A stretch of 64,000 bases of DNA. It comes from Paludisphaera soli (GTDB taxonomy: Bacteria > Planctomycetota > Planctomycetia > Isosphaerales > Isosphaeraceae). The notes beneath the pieces were generated by a model. The model did no database searches, had not been told where the DNA came from, and worked only from the letters and a program-made list of their open reading frames with translations. The first letter of the stretch is position 1. Each line of letters begins with the position of its first letter. The position numbers and the translations under genes were made by a program. The DNA lies in the NCBI RefSeq assembly GCF_011064595.1, contig NZ_JAALJI010000002.1, forward strand, positions 434,001-498,000, in the 5' to 3' direction. Below, one piece after another: positions 5,855-10,785 of the stretch.

Positions 5855-8800
5855 ATGTCGACGCCCGCAGCCACCCCCCGCGACCGCCGCGGCCGGGTGT
5901 ACCAGCCCGCCATCGGCCCGAAGCTCCGGCCGCTGCTCTGGGTGATCCTGATCGCCTTCGCCGTCCTGGCGGCCAACGGGTTCTACCTGTCCAGCGTCAC
6001 GGCGCTGACGTGGTACACCGGCAGCACCCAGCAGACGTATTTCTACTTCCTGATGGCCCTGCTGCACGTCCTGCTGGGCCTCTTGCTCGTCGTCCCGTTC
6101 GTGGCGTTCGGGTTCGCGCACCTGGTCACCTCGTGGAAGCGGCCGAACAAGTCGGCGGTGCGTTACGGGCTGGCGCTGCTGGCGATCGGGGTCGTGGTCC
6201 TGGTCTCCGGGTTCATGCTGGTGCGGATCGGCGGGTTCGAGGTCCGCGACGTCCGCGTCCGCGACGCCGGCTACTGGGCGCACGTCGTCGCGCCCTTGCT
6301 CGCGGTCGGGCTCTACGTCAAGCACCGCCTGGCCGGCCCCCGGATCCGCTGGGAGTGGGCGCGACGGTTCGCGATCCCGGTGGTCGGGTTCGCGGCGGTC
6401 ATGGGCGTGCTGCACTTCCAGGACCCGAGGACGTTCGGCGAGCGGGGGCCGAAGTCGGGCAAGCAGTACTTCTACCCGTCCGAGGCGGTCACGGCCAACG
6501 GCAAGTTCATCCCGGCCGAGACGCTGATGATGGACCAGTACTGCCTGAACTGCCACAAGGACGCCTACGACGGCTGGTTCCACTCGTCGCACCGGCTCAG
6601 CTCGTTCAACAACAAGGCGTACCTGTCGAGCGTCCGCGAGACCCGGCAGGTCTCGATGGAGCGCGACGGCACCACCCAGGCCGCCCGCTGGTGCGCCGGC
6701 TGCCACGACCCCGTGCCGTTCTTCTCCGGCCAGTTCGACGACCCGAACTACGACGACGTGAACGACCCGACCGCGCACGCCGGGATCACCTGCACCACCT
6801 GCCACGCCATCAGCAACGTCAACAACACCCGGGGCAACGGCGCCTACACCATCGAGGAGCCCCAGCACTACCCCTTCGCCTTCAGCGACGACCCGGTCCT
6901 GCAGTGGATCAACCACACGCTGGTGAAGGCCAAGCCCGAGATGCACAAGAAGACGTTCCTGAAGCCGATCATCCGCTCGAGCGAGTTCTGCTCGACCTGC
7001 CACAAGGTCGGCCTGCCGTTCGCGCTCAACGAGTACAAGGACTTCGTCCGGGGCCAGGACCACTACACGCCGCACCTGCTCTCGGGCGTCTCGGGCCACG
7101 GGGCGCGGAGCTTCTACTATCCGCCCGTCGCCAAGTCCAACTGCGCCGACTGCCACATGGAACTGAAGGACTCGAACGATTTCGGCGCCCAGGATTTCGC
7201 GGCCAAGGGGAGCCGCCAGATCCACGACCACACGTTCGTCGGAGCCAACACGGCCCTCGCCCACTTCCAGGGGGACGAGAAGACGGTCGAGGCCCACCGG
7301 AAGTACCTGAGCGACAAGAAGGTCCGCGTCGACCTGTTCGCCCTCCGCGAGGGGGGCGAGATCGACGGCGAATTCCTCGGCCCGCTACGCCCCGAGGTCC
7401 CCACGCTCAAGCCCGGCGGGAAGTACCTGGTGCAGACGGTCGTGCGGACGCTGGGCCTCGGCCACCCGCTGACCCAGGGGACCGTCGACTCGAACGAGAT
7501 CTGGGTCGAGCTGATCGCCCGCGACGGCGACCGGATCGTCGGCCGCTCGGGGGGGATCGGCGAGGACGGCGCGGTCGACCCGTACTCGCACTTCATCAAC
7601 GTCTACATGCTCGACCGCGAGGGGAACCGGATCGACCGCCGCAACCCCCAGGACATCTTCGTCCCGCTCTACAACAAGCAGATCCCCCCCGGGGCCGGCC
7701 AGGTCGTCCACTTCGGCCTCGACGTGCCGCCGGGGGCGACCGGCCCGATCACGCTGGAGGCCCGCGTCAACTACCGCAAATTCGACCGGACCTACATGGA
7801 CTACCTCTTCGGCAAGGGCGAGGGGCCCGAGATCCCCATCACCCTGATGGCGACGGACTCCGTCAAGCTCCCGGTCGAGGGGGGGCCCGCCGTCGAGAAC
7901 GAGCCCTCCCCCATCAAGGAGACCTGGCAGCGCTGGAACGACTACGGGATCGGCCTGCTGCTGGAAGGGGGCGAGAAGGGGGGCCAGAAGGGCGAGCTGA
8001 AGCAGGCCGAGCCGGTCTTCCGGAAGGTCGCCGAGCTGGGCAAGGCCGACGGCTGGGTCAACCTGGCGCGGGTCTACGAGCGCGAGGGGCGGATCCCCGA
8101 GGCCCTGGAGGCCCTGGAGAAGGCCGCCTCCCACGAGGAGCCCGCCGCCCCCTGGACGATCAACTGGCTCACCGGCCGGATCAACGTCCGCAACGGCCTG
8201 CTGGACGAAGCCGTCGCCAACTTCGAGACGGTCCTGAATACCAGGATCCCCGAGCGCAAGTTCGACTTCAGCCTCGACTACGTCGTGATCAACGAGCTGG
8301 CCCAGGCCTGCTACGGCCGCGCCCGGATCGAGCCGGTCGAGGGTGAGGAGCGGAAGGCCTGGCTGACGAAGGCGATCACCAACTACCACCGCTCGGTGAA
8401 GATCGAGGCCGAGGACGTGGCCTCGCACTACGGCCTGGGGCTGGCCTTCGGCGACCCGGCCTGGGGCCCCAAGCCGCCCGAGCCGGACGCCCCGGCCGAG
8501 CCGATCGACCCCGAGAGCCTCGGCGCCCAGGTCCCCGGCGTCGCCGACGTGGACGCCCCGGCCCAAACCCGCAAGGAGCGGGCGCTCAAGCTGGCCGCCG
8601 ACGTCGCGCGCTACGTCAAGGGCCCGCGTCCCAAGTATCAGTCGCGGCTGGAGCCGCTCTACGAGGTGACCGACGGCCTGGCGAAGGCCTGGGAGCAGGC
8701 CGCCGACCCCGAGGTCCGCTCGGCGATCGGCCGGGTCCTGGAGGTCGGCCACAAGGCGCTCCACGAGCGGCTCAAGCCCGACGAGACGGCCGAGGGACGC

Positions 8801-8968: not shown

Positions 8969-10785
8969 CCGACCGGAAGACCCTGAATCCATCTCCGTCC
9001 ATTCGCCTCCTGACCGCGGCGATCCTGGCCGCGGCGGCCCTCCCCCTGGCCTCGGGCGGCTGCGCCAAGGCCCCGGAGCCGACGGTCCTCGCCGCACCGG
9101 TCGCGCCGACGCGGCCCAAGCTCGTCGAGACCGCCTCGCTGCCGACCGTCAAGTTCGTCGACGTGACGAAGGAGGCCGGGATCGACTTCGTCCACTTCAA
9201 CGGCGCGAAGGGGGAGAAGCTCCTGCCCGAGACGATGGGCTCGGGCGTCGCCTTCCTCGACTACGACGGCGACGGCGACCAGGACCTCCTGCTCGTCAAC
9301 TCGTCCCCCTGGCCGGGCGACCAGGACGCCCCCGACCCCGCCCCCACCCAGCGCCTCTACCGCAACGACGGCAAGGGGAAGTTCGAGGACGCGACCAAGG
9401 AAGCCGGCCTCGACAAGACCTTCTACGGCCAGGGCGTCGCGGTCGGCGACTACGACAACGACGGCGACCCCGACGTCTACGTCACGGCCGTCGGCCGCGG
9501 CTACCTCTTCCGCAACGACGGCGGCAAGTTCGCCGACGTCAGCGAGGCCGCCAACGCCAGGGGCCCCAACGGCTGGCTCTCGGGCGCGGCGTTCTTCGAC
9601 ATGGAGAACGACGGCGACCTCGACCTCTTCCTCTGCAACTACATCACCTGGACCCCCGAGATCGACAAGGTCCAGGGCTTCCAGCTCACCGGACTGGGCC
9701 GAGCCTACGGGCCGCCGACCTCGTTCAACGGCTCGCTCTGCGTGCTCCTGCGCAACGACGAGGGCCGGTTCACCGACGTCAGCGAGGAGTCCGGCGTCCA
9801 GGTCCGCACCCCCGACCTCAAGGCCCCGCTGGGCAAGTCCCTGGGCGTGGCCCCGTTCGACGTGGACGGCGACGGCCTGGTCGACGTGGCGATCGCCAAC
9901 GACACCGTGCAGAACTTCCTCTTCCACAACAAGGGGGGCGGGAAGTTCGAGGAGATCGCGCTTTTGTCCGGCGTGGCCTTCGACCAGTCGGGCTCGCCCC
10001 GGGGCGGCATGGGCTGCGACTGGGCCTATTTCCTGGACGACGAACGCCTGGGCCTGGCGATCGGCAACTTCGCCAACGAGATGACCGCGCTCTACGTCAC
10101 CGACCAGCCGTCGGGCCTGCAGTTCTCCGACCTGGCCAACCTCTACGGCCTGGGGGCGCCGACCCAGCCCCCCTTGAAGTTCGGTATCTTCTTCTTCGAC
10201 TACGACCTGGACGGCCGCCTCGACCTGCTCTCGGCCAACGGCCACCTGGAGCCGGACATCTCCAAGGTCCAGGCCAGCGAGCACTACGAGCAGTCGGCGC
10301 AGCTGCTCTGGAACTCGGGCCGGCCCGGGCGCGAGCTGTACGTGAACATCGGCCCCGAGGCCGCCGGCCCCGACCTCTTCAACCCGATGGTCGGCCGCGG
10401 CAGCGCCTACGCCGACATCGACGGCGACGGCGACCTCGACGTGGTCCTGACCGCCAACAACGCCCCGGCGCGACTGCTCCGCAACGACGGCGGCGACGCC
10501 AATCGTTGGATCCGCGTCGAGCTGACAAGCGACGGCAAGGCCTCGAACCGCGACGCGATCGGCGCCAAGGTGTCCGTCCGGGTCGGCGACCGGACCAGCC
10601 GCCGCCAGCTCTTCCCCGCGAAGAGCTACCTGTCGTCGATGGAACATCCCCTGACCTTCGGCCTCGGCCGCGCCGAGAAGGTCGACGAGCTGACCGTCAC
10701 CTGGCCCTCGGGGAAGACCTCGAAGTTCGAGAACCTCGACGCGGGTCGGATGTACCGGGTCGACGAGCTGTCCGGCCTGCGCTGA
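8965..10785 (+). CDS. CRTAC1-type lipoprotein: FG-GAP repeats with C-terminal ASPIC/UnbV domain
   Basis: The 606-aa product starts in a 4-bp ATGA overlap with the cytochrome gene, which indicates translational coupling. A lipoprotein signal ends at Cys33 (PLASGGC). At least six FG-GAP calcium-binding loops are visible: DYDGDGDQD, DYDNDGDPD, DMENDGDLD, DVDGDGLVD, DYDLDGRLD and DIDGDGDLD, which predicts an integrin-alpha-like beta-propeller. The last about 110 residues are the ASPIC/UnbV domain (SNRDAIGAKVSVRVG, GLGRAEKVDELTVTWPSG). Proteins of this kind are abundant in planctomycetes and are usually extracytoplasmic; their biochemical role is not established. The tight coupling to the multiheme cytochrome suggests that the two act together at the cell surface. 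Confidence 0.92.
   Translation: MTDRKTLNPSPSIRLLTAAILAAAALPLASGGCAKAPEPTVLAAPVAPTRPKLVETASLPTVKFVDVTKEAGIDFVHFNGAKGEKLLPETMGSGVAFLDYDGDGDQDLLLVNSSPWPGDQDAPDPAPTQRLYRNDGKGKFEDATKEAGLDKTFYGQGVAVGDYDNDGDPDVYVTAVGRGYLFRNDGGKFADVSEAANARGPNGWLSGAAFFDMENDGDLDLFLCNYITWTPEIDKVQGFQLTGLGRAYGPPTSFNGSLCVLLRNDEGRFTDVSEESGVQVRTPDLKAPLGKSLGVAPFDVDGDGLVDVAIANDTVQNFLFHNKGGGKFEEIALLSGVAFDQSGSPRGGMGCDWAYFLDDERLGLAIGNFANEMTALYVTDQPSGLQFSDLANLYGLGAPTQPPLKFGIFFFDYDLDGRLDLLSANGHLEPDISKVQASEHYEQSAQLLWNSGRPGRELYVNIGPEAAGPDLFNPMVGRGSAYADIDGDGDLDVVLTANNAPARLLRNDGGDANRWIRVELTSDGKASNRDAIGAKVSVRVGDRTSRRQLFPAKSYLSSMEHPLTFGLGRAEKVDELTVTWPSGKTSKFENLDAGRMYRVDELSGLR

What the first reader, a model, noticed from the sequence alone, without database searches (positions are those of the whole stretch)
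5855..10785. Translationally coupled five-heme cytochrome-TPR and CRTAC1-like lipoprotein: a possible surface redox module
The cytochrome combines a histidine-containing 4-5 TM anchor, five CXXCH sites, beta-rich domains and a long TPR tail in one 1037-aa chain, then overlaps (ATGA) a lipidated FG-GAP/ASPIC-UnbV protein. The parts are known families; this fixed pairing implies a partnership, possibly electron transfer from quinol to an extracytoplasmic acceptor or an oxidative modification of surface glycans. No function is described that I know of.
Basis: partly seen in the sequence, partly recalled or inferred. Interest (0 to 1): 0.62.

Follow-up and report, generated by a model that had tools for sequence, protein, structure and literature searches.

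The report
Multiheme cytochrome with a propeller partner
Two neighbouring genes encode a membrane cytochrome with seven probable hemes and a tethered beta-propeller protein; the two have stayed together in many Planctomycetota, usually even where they lie apart on the chromosome, so they probably form one still undescribed electron-transfer complex.

Summary
Window 5855-8968 encodes a 1037-aa protein with five membrane helices, five CXXCH sites, a beta domain and TPRs; its stop overlaps (ATGA) a 606-aa CRTAC1-family protein. New here: (1) Four histidines in helices 2 and 4 (H71, H89, H143, H157) are kept in 76-77 of 78 homologues, the pattern of two b hemes, so this is a probable 2b+5c quinone-linked cytochrome; its c-heme part has the fold of T. 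tepidum pentaheme c552. (2) The pairing is old: adjacent in 39 of 43 close-homologue loci of a phylum sample and 65 of 80 named loci. Of ten close-homologue genomes where they are not neighbours, eight keep the partner orthologue elsewhere. Partners form one clade apart from the unpaired CRTAC1 paralogues sampled. In three of eight distant pairs the TPR sits on the CRTAC1 chain. (3) The partner is anchored by a membrane helix in most relatives and by a lipid in this clade, which favours an inner-membrane complex over a surface module. Quinone coupling is inferred; direction, substrate and contact are untested; one CRTAC1-free subfamily exists.

The parts
5855..8968 (+). Cytochrome gene (1037 aa): membrane domain, pentaheme c domain, beta domain, TPR domain
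   Evidence: only match of its kind in its genome
5924..6415 (+). Five membrane helices (aa 24-187); H71 and H89 in helix 2, H143 and H157 in helix 4: probable ligands of two b hemes
   Evidence: helices from the model and hydropathy; histidines conserved in 76-77 of 78; no Pfam family at E<=0.01 for aa 1-201
6512..7318 (+). Pentaheme c domain (aa 220-488); CXXCH codons at 6542-6556, 6692-6706, 6791-6805, 6989-7003, 7142-7156; further invariant His at aa 246, 364, 459
   Evidence: Z 15.0 to 5ze8 over aa 220-672; profile match to 5ze8 E=1.4e-10
7319..7879 (+). Beta domain (aa 489-675) with invariant H537 in a GHx4Gx2D motif, aligned with PHAMPTG of 5ze8
   Evidence: that aligned piece is weak on its own
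7916..8854 (+). TPR helical domain (aa 688-1000)
8965..10785 (+). CRTAC1-family partner gene (606 aa), overlapping the cytochrome stop by ATGA
   Evidence: Z 40.2 to murine CRTAC1
9061..9063 (+). Cys33, candidate lipidated cysteine (SGGC box, weak here; clearer LxGC boxes in several near relatives)
9139..10494 (+). FG-GAP beta-propeller (aa 59-510)
10555..10755 (+). ASPIC/UnbV domain (aa 531-597)

Best explanation
The two genes encode a two-subunit, quinone-linked electron-transfer complex on the periplasmic face of the cytoplasmic membrane. Helices 2 and 4 of the cytochrome hold two stacked b hemes (H71/H143 towards the periplasm, H89/H157 towards the cytoplasm) that exchange electrons with the quinone pool. 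The fused pentaheme domain carries electrons to or from a periplasmic partner or substrate. The TPR domain is the docking arm for the membrane-tethered CRTAC1 propeller, which positions or binds that partner or substrate. Shown here by computation: anatomy, conservation, predicted fold of each chain, old linkage and co-retention. Inferred: heme b ligation, quinone coupling, the TPR-CRTAC1 contact. Direction is open; I lean slightly to quinol oxidation by analogy with CbcL.
For: Four membrane His in 76-77 of 78 homologues, two each in helices 2 and 4 at matching depths. All five c-heme sites in 78 of 78. Fold match to pentaheme c552, Z 15.0 over 342 residues; profile E=1.4e-10. Same-strand neighbours in 39 of 43 tier A (close) and 18 of 28 tier B (intermediate) loci, in 8 of 8 tier C (distant) loci (one search gives 7; L116), and in 65 of 80 named loci (the samples overlap). 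Apart from frames overlapping the two genes, no other frame family recurs in more than 15 of 123 loci. Of ten close-homologue genomes where the genes are not neighbours, eight keep the partner orthologue elsewhere at 51-56% identity. Over 294 genomes: 42 both, 4 and 5 one only by my cut-offs, 243 neither, phi 0.89. Partners of tiers A and B form one clade (62 rows, SH-aLRT 100); the five rows labelled 'other' in it are three paired genes fetched twice and the unlinked copies of G024 and G044, genomes that carry the cytochrome. In three of eight tier C pairs the CRTAC1 chain is 854 aa, with TPRs in the two tested, and the cytochrome is short. Three own-genome CRTAC1 paralogues tested are TPR-CRTAC1 fusions.
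Against: Nothing shows physical contact: no complex was modelled, and residue covariation over 114 pairs (Neff 80) was inconclusive. A nine-member subfamily (B2) keeps the heme sites, and TPRs in the two members tested, with no CRTAC1 gene seen beside it, though three of the nine loci end within 450 bases; four of five such genomes searched have no close partner orthologue. G085 has a partner-like gene (45% identity) and no cytochrome hit; G295 has the cytochrome with no partner match above 36%, and G300 only a doubtful one at 41%. Five of eight tier C pairs have a CRTAC1 of 591-614 aa, too short to carry the TPRs, beside a short cytochrome. Co-occurrence is not corrected for kinship. Helix 4 is weakly hydrophobic in this protein. 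The genome also has cytochrome b-family and NrfD-family proteins, so this is not its only quinone-linked candidate.
Confidence: 0.6

Rival explanations
1. The pentaheme domain is itself an enzyme: one c heme lacks a distal histidine and reduces or oxidises a small molecule, with CRTAC1 shaping access; the b domain only exchanges electrons with quinone.
For: Only four non-CXXCH histidines (246, 364, 459, 537) are invariant in the soluble part, for five c hemes. Weak profile relatives include cytochrome c554 (E=4.6e-4) and the multiheme selenoprotein MccSep (E=0.008).
Against: The fifth heme may be ligated by another residue (a His that differs between clades, or Met435, kept in 76 of 78); no geometry could be read from the model.
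Confidence: 0.3
2. Oxidative modification or capture of glycans or other large substrates by the propeller, with the cytochrome as electron sink.
For: The propeller also resembles sugar-acting or sugar-binding propellers (aldos-2-ulose dehydratase, Z 27-28; Psathyrella lectin among the Foldseek matches).
Against: Many unrelated propellers score about as high; no neighbouring gene is widely conserved that could be a glycan enzyme; the tether suggests the inner membrane.
Confidence: 0.1
3. CRTAC1 is an assembly or stability factor for the cytochrome and takes no part in electron transfer.
For: The B2 cytochromes seem to do without it; a gene just downstream with an overlapping start suits assembly during translation.
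Against: Its own conservation (mean column identity 43%) and retention where unlinked suit a lasting subunit equally well.
Confidence: 0.2
4. A surface (outer-membrane) redox module, as first proposed.
For: A cysteine after the hydrophobic stretch in this clade (9 of 9) and in tier B (15 of 16).
Against: 79 of 91 tier A partners outside the window's clade have a strongly hydrophobic N-terminal stretch with no cysteine after it; the cytochrome has membrane helices of inner-membrane type.
Confidence: 0.05

Closest known systems
Pentaheme cytochrome c552 of Thermochromatium tepidum (PDB 5ze8) and the PHC family (ExtKL, Gsu2801, cable-bacteria sPHC/lPHC; archaeal AvECN as a proposed relative), PMC11976967, passages seen
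   Same: Five c hemes plus a beta domain; Z 15.0 over 342 residues; profile E=1.4e-10; His and Gly of the beta-domain motif align
   Different: Ours is fused to a five-helix membrane domain with four conserved His and to a TPR domain, and has a CRTAC1 partner gene; far below the ExtKL equivalog cut-off (19.2 against 250 bits)
CbcL/MtrH/MtoC inner-membrane quinol oxidases or quinone reductases (PMC6295460, passages seen)
   Same: One chain that joins a multiheme c domain to a membrane domain thought to hold b hemes
   Different: CbcL has the c hemes first and six helices last, similar to HydC/FdnI, with three conserved His reported; ours has the membrane part first, five helices, four conserved His and no Pfam match there
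CRTAC1 / ASPIC-UnbV family (murine CRTAC1, PDB 9etn)
   Same: FG-GAP propeller plus ASPIC/UnbV domain; Z 40.2 over 458 residues
   Different: Membrane-tethered and genetically tied to one cytochrome; my searches found no established function for bacterial members
CRTAC1 genes beside hydrazine-synthase-like genes (PMC12758564, passages seen)
   Same: A CRTAC1-annotated gene set among genes of a heme enzyme
   Different: Different heme proteins; the passages seen mention no b domain or TPR

Membership tests
PHC (T. tepidum c552 / ExtKL) cytochrome domain | Five c-type heme motifs in one domain | tested here: met
   Five sites, C/C/H in 78 of 78
PHC (T. tepidum c552 / ExtKL) cytochrome domain | Same fold, heme part plus beta domain | tested here: met
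   5ze8 Z 15.0, rmsd 3.6, 342 aligned of 385, top row (next 12.4); it is not among the 50 rows Foldseek shows by E-value
ExtKL equivalog (NF040886) | Score above the curated cut-off | tested here: not met
   19.2 against 250 bits: a distant relative, not ExtKL
CbcL/MtrH/MtoC | Multiheme c domain and b-type membrane domain in one chain | tested here: inconclusive
   Five CXXCH and four conserved membrane His; heme b itself not shown
CbcL/MtrH/MtoC | HydC/FdnI-like C-terminal membrane domain | tested here: not met
   Membrane part is N-terminal; no Pfam match for aa 1-201; TIGR02125 only E=0.041, 13.4 against 121.5 bits
CRTAC1 / ASPIC-UnbV | FG-GAP repeats followed by an ASPIC/UnbV domain | tested here: met
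   PF13517 E=1.6e-32 and PF07593 E=7.8e-21, both above cut-off
CRTAC1 / ASPIC-UnbV | Calcium binding by the repeats | not testable with these tools
   DxDGD motifs present; no binding test
NapC/NirT (CymA) quinol dehydrogenase | Short N-terminal membrane stretch and four hemes (as PMC6295460 describes CymA) | tested here: not met
   Five helices and five c-heme sites

The most novel reading that the evidence does not exclude
An undescribed respiratory complex core: a 2b+5c quinone oxidoreductase in which a CRTAC1 propeller is a built-in subunit and a TPR adaptor can sit on either chain. It would be a first defined role for bacterial ASPIC/UnbV proteins, as far as my searches reach.
Probability: 0.35. 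Interest if true: 0.8.

Novelty: new variant of a known kind. Interest (0 to 1): 0.6.

Why it matters
ASPIC/UnbV (CRTAC1-like) proteins are numerous in these bacteria (12 domain matches in this genome; 2 to 10 in each of ten relatives), and my searches found no bacterial function for them in print. A pair kept together across much of a phylum, usually even when unlinked, gives one of them a concrete partner and a testable redox setting. It would also add a fused b-c type to the short list of inner-membrane quinone-linked multiheme cytochromes discussed in PMC6295460 (CymA, CbcL, ImcH), in a phylum with many cultured aerobes (recalled).

Tried and rejected
Upstream or downstream genes as further parts: not supported. 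Apart from frames that overlap the two genes, no frame family recurs in more than 15 of the 123 close-homologue loci clustered. The 200-aa lipoprotein-like gene upstream recurs in 9 and the S41 protease in 9 (two of these on the other strand).

A multiheme neighbour as a habit of CRTAC1 genes in general: not seen in this genome. In the ten regions that hold its eleven other ASPIC matches, no frame of 120 aa or more has over one CXXCH.

Residue covariation between the two proteins: the top three pairs fall in the TPR region (z 8.4, 8.0, 7.1, against 6.1-6.9 as the maxima of five shuffles), but the shuffle removes relatedness and the depth is small; pairs in other domains follow closely. Not used.

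Distal ligands of each c heme and b-heme geometry: model coordinates are not readable here, so heme pairing is argued from sequence depth only. No Pfam family for the membrane domain came up and the structural rows barely cover it, so I make no statement on its fold.

Extra CRTAC1 regions fetched were used only to look for CXXCH frames beside high-scoring partners.

Selections and rows dropped. Of the hits listed, 80 loci were fetched; three tier A genomes (G177, G190, G281) were not fetched with long flanks. L059 (cut at a contig end), L117 and L118 (22-23% identity) were left out of the cytochrome alignment (78 rows). The partner tree left out L202 and L210 (short), partners of 500 aa or less and L116. 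The covariation run left out L060, partners of 500 aa or less, and tier C. The anchor counts left out L116 and partners under 450 aa. Some adjacent partners are cut or broken (L120, L126, L142, L143, L149, L184: 91-420 aa). Tiers are by tblastn bits (over 650; 250-650; up to 250). 'Window's clade' means the window, L119-L127 and L198, chosen by identity, not by taxonomy. The ten genomes without neighbours are G024, G087 and G294-G301; in G301 a different CRTAC1 gene lies 2 kb downstream.
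Full report
WHAT IS THERE. The window lies in genome G000 (7.97 Mb). The nearest named relatives of the cytochrome include Isosphaeraceae MAGs and Singulisphaera acidiphila (64-71% identity), so it is a planctomycete, probably of that family (inference). Gene 1 (5855-8968) and gene 2 (8965-10785) overlap as ATGA. Gene 1 is the only match of its kind in the genome; the genome holds 12 ASPIC/UnbV matches.

ANATOMY. The cytochrome model is confident (pLDDT 90.1, pTM 0.89, 78 sequences). Helices 24-55, 62-93, 99-123, 133-159 and 166-187 form the membrane part. 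Helices 4 and 5 are less hydrophobic than 1-3 in this protein (1.20 and 1.45 against 2.3-2.7), with family medians of 1.56 and 1.82. Positive stretches before helix 1 and between helices 2-3 and 4-5 suggest N-terminus in, heme domain out (read from the sequence; inference). H71 and H89 lie in helix 2, H143 and H157 in helix 4, at matching distances from the helix ends, conserved in 76, 77, 77 and 77 of 78 homologues. Two bis-His b hemes are the usual meaning of such a pattern (recalled; not measured). No Pfam family matches residues 1-201 at E<=0.01.

The pentaheme part plus beta domain (220-672) matches pentaheme cytochrome c552, 5ze8, at Z 15.0, 342 residues, rmsd 3.6; the next rows, Z 12.4 and lower, are mostly TPR proteins. 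A domain profile finds 5ze8 at E=1.4e-10 and cytochrome c554 at 4.6e-4. PMC11976967 (passages seen) groups ExtKL, Gsu2801 and cable-bacteria pentaheme cytochromes, relates them to c552 and archaeal AvECN, and says that c552 has no clear assigned role, with sulfur metabolism suggested. Only four other His (246, 364, 459, 537) are invariant there, so one heme may have an unusual or open site. In tier C the first heme motif is CX4CH in 8 of 8; elsewhere two fifth-heme sites deviate (L046, L080).

The partner model (pLDDT 90.7) is a CRTAC1 fold: Z 40.2 to 9etn, 458 residues.

IS THE PAIR REAL. In 294 genomes drawn from the phylum, 88 hold a cytochrome homologue at E<=1e-10. Eighty loci around listed hits, plus the window, were read. 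Tier A (43 loci): the CRTAC1 gene follows on the same strand within 0.5 kb in 39. Of the other four, one is cut by a contig end (its genome has a cytochrome fragment and a CRTAC1 gene side by side on another contig), one has it 3.3 kb on, and two (G024, G087) are unlinked. Tier B (28): 18 adjacent, 10 not; three of those ten have under 450 bases left. Tier C (8): 7 by the automatic count and the eighth, L116, on inspection. Two very weak hits (L117, L118) had none. Named loci include records labelled Verrucomicrobia and Acidobacteria as well as Planctomycetota; labels of such MAGs were not checked. Around the 123 close-homologue loci no other frame family recurs in more than 15, frames overlapping the two genes aside. 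Over 131 adjacent pairs of both samples, 33 overlap by 4 bases and 9 by 1 (starts chosen automatically).

UNLINKED BUT RETAINED. In G024 and G087 the orthologue is elsewhere (51%, 581 and 603 bits; next paralogues 233 and 252 bits). Of eight further genomes with no such gene beside the cytochrome, six keep it elsewhere (52-56%, 592-656 bits), one has a doubtful 41% match (393 bits) and one nothing above 36%. So 8 of 10.

CO-OCCURRENCE. Close cytochromes against partner matches of 440 bits or more over 294 genomes give 42, 4, 5, 243 (phi 0.89). Of the four cytochrome genomes under the cut-off, G274 has an adjacent partner (L096), G281 has one on the same contig and strand 0.4 kb on, G177 has a 49% fragment and G251 a 42% match. 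Of the five partner-only genomes, four have a more distant cytochrome hit (G044, G061, G063, G212) and one none (G085). Kinship is not corrected for, and the cut-off was chosen by me.

TREES. Partners of tiers A and B form one clade (62 rows, SH-aLRT 100; quick search, LG+G4, no bootstrap). The five rows in it labelled 'other' are three paired genes fetched twice and the unlinked copies of G024 and G044; the other sampled paralogues and the tier C partners lie outside. In the cytochrome tree, tier A (51 rows), B1 (19), B2 (9) and C (8) each separate with support of 99 or 100; the tool warns of long branches between C and the rest. B2 has no CRTAC1 gene beside it where sequence allows a look: of five such genomes searched, four have no close partner orthologue (best 49-199 bits) and the fifth has one that sits beside its tier A cytochrome. 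So the cytochrome can probably work without CRTAC1.

ANCHORS. Among adjacent partners of 450 aa or more, 79 of 91 tier A partners outside the window's clade have a strongly hydrophobic N-terminal stretch and no cysteine after it (9 less hydrophobic, 3 with a cysteine). The cysteine is there in 9 of 9 of the window's clade, 15 of 16 of tier B and 0 of 7 of tier C. A strict lipobox pattern finds 0 of 91, 8 of 9, 9 of 16 and 0 of 7. Some chosen starts are too far downstream, so hydrophobicity is under-counted. A membrane tether looks constant, its chemistry is not, and a helix tether fits the inner membrane.

THE TPR MOVES. Tier C cytochromes are 699-718 aa; the one scanned has no TPR. In three of eight the CRTAC1 chain is 854 aa, and both of the two scanned end in TPRs. 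The other five have CRTAC1 chains of 591-614 aa, and genes farther on were not scanned. Three own-genome CRTAC1 paralogues tested are TPR-CRTAC1 fusions. This traffic suggests, but does not show, that TPR and propeller touch.

READING. Best: an inner-membrane, quinone-linked 2b+5c cytochrome with a tethered propeller subunit (0.6). The genome also has cytochrome b-family matches at two places and one NrfD-family match. Closest in working principle is CbcL (PMC6295460, passages seen), which differs in domain order, helix number and family.

LITERATURE. Searches of the held library: CRTAC1+cytochrome+Planctomycetes (1 paper); UnbV+multiheme (0); 'CRTAC1 family protein' (1); Thermochromatium tepidum+cytochrome c552 (1); Planctomycetes+multiheme+FG-GAP (1); multiheme cytochrome/selenoprotein/MccSep (1, unrelated, listing); Planctomycetes/alternative complex III/quinol/multiheme (35, 15 listed, listing); Rhodopirellula/cytochrome/UnbV (73, 12 listed, listing); CRTAC1/heme/bacteria/FG-GAP (16, 15 listed, listing); planctomycet+tetratricopeptide+multiheme+operon (0). 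PMC12758564 (passages seen) reports a CRTAC1-annotated gene between or beside hydrazine-synthase-like genes. I found no description of this pair; subscription journals are mostly not held.

Noticed in passing
window 5148-5750: 200-aa lipoprotein-like gene just upstream; relatives recur in 9 of 123 close-homologue loci; only a weak DcrB match below cut-off.
   Followed up: partly
window 11174-12895: S41 C-terminal processing peptidase with PDZ domain downstream; relatives near the pair in 9 of 123 loci, two of them on the other strand.
   Followed up: partly
window 18621-19460: 279-aa frame with a C-terminal Phage_tail_X match above cut-off.
   Followed up: no
L109-L116: Distant tier C homologues use a CX4CH motif for the first heme in 8 of 8, against CX2CH in the other 70 rows.
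   Followed up: partly
L068, L074, L075, L100, L101, L103, L104, L107, L108: A cytochrome subfamily (B2) with the heme sites and no CRTAC1 neighbour seen; TPRs found in the two members scanned, L068 and L101.
   Followed up: partly
L229, L231, L233: Own-genome CRTAC1 paralogues of 957-981 aa with N-terminal TPRs; L233 holds a second CRTAC1-like frame right behind the first, not scanned.
   Followed up: partly
G000:C1:106820-109384: Eight CXXCH-coding patterns within 2.6 kb, about 2.5 kb after a cytochrome b-family match at C1:103752-104351: perhaps a bc complex with a multiheme subunit.
   Followed up: no
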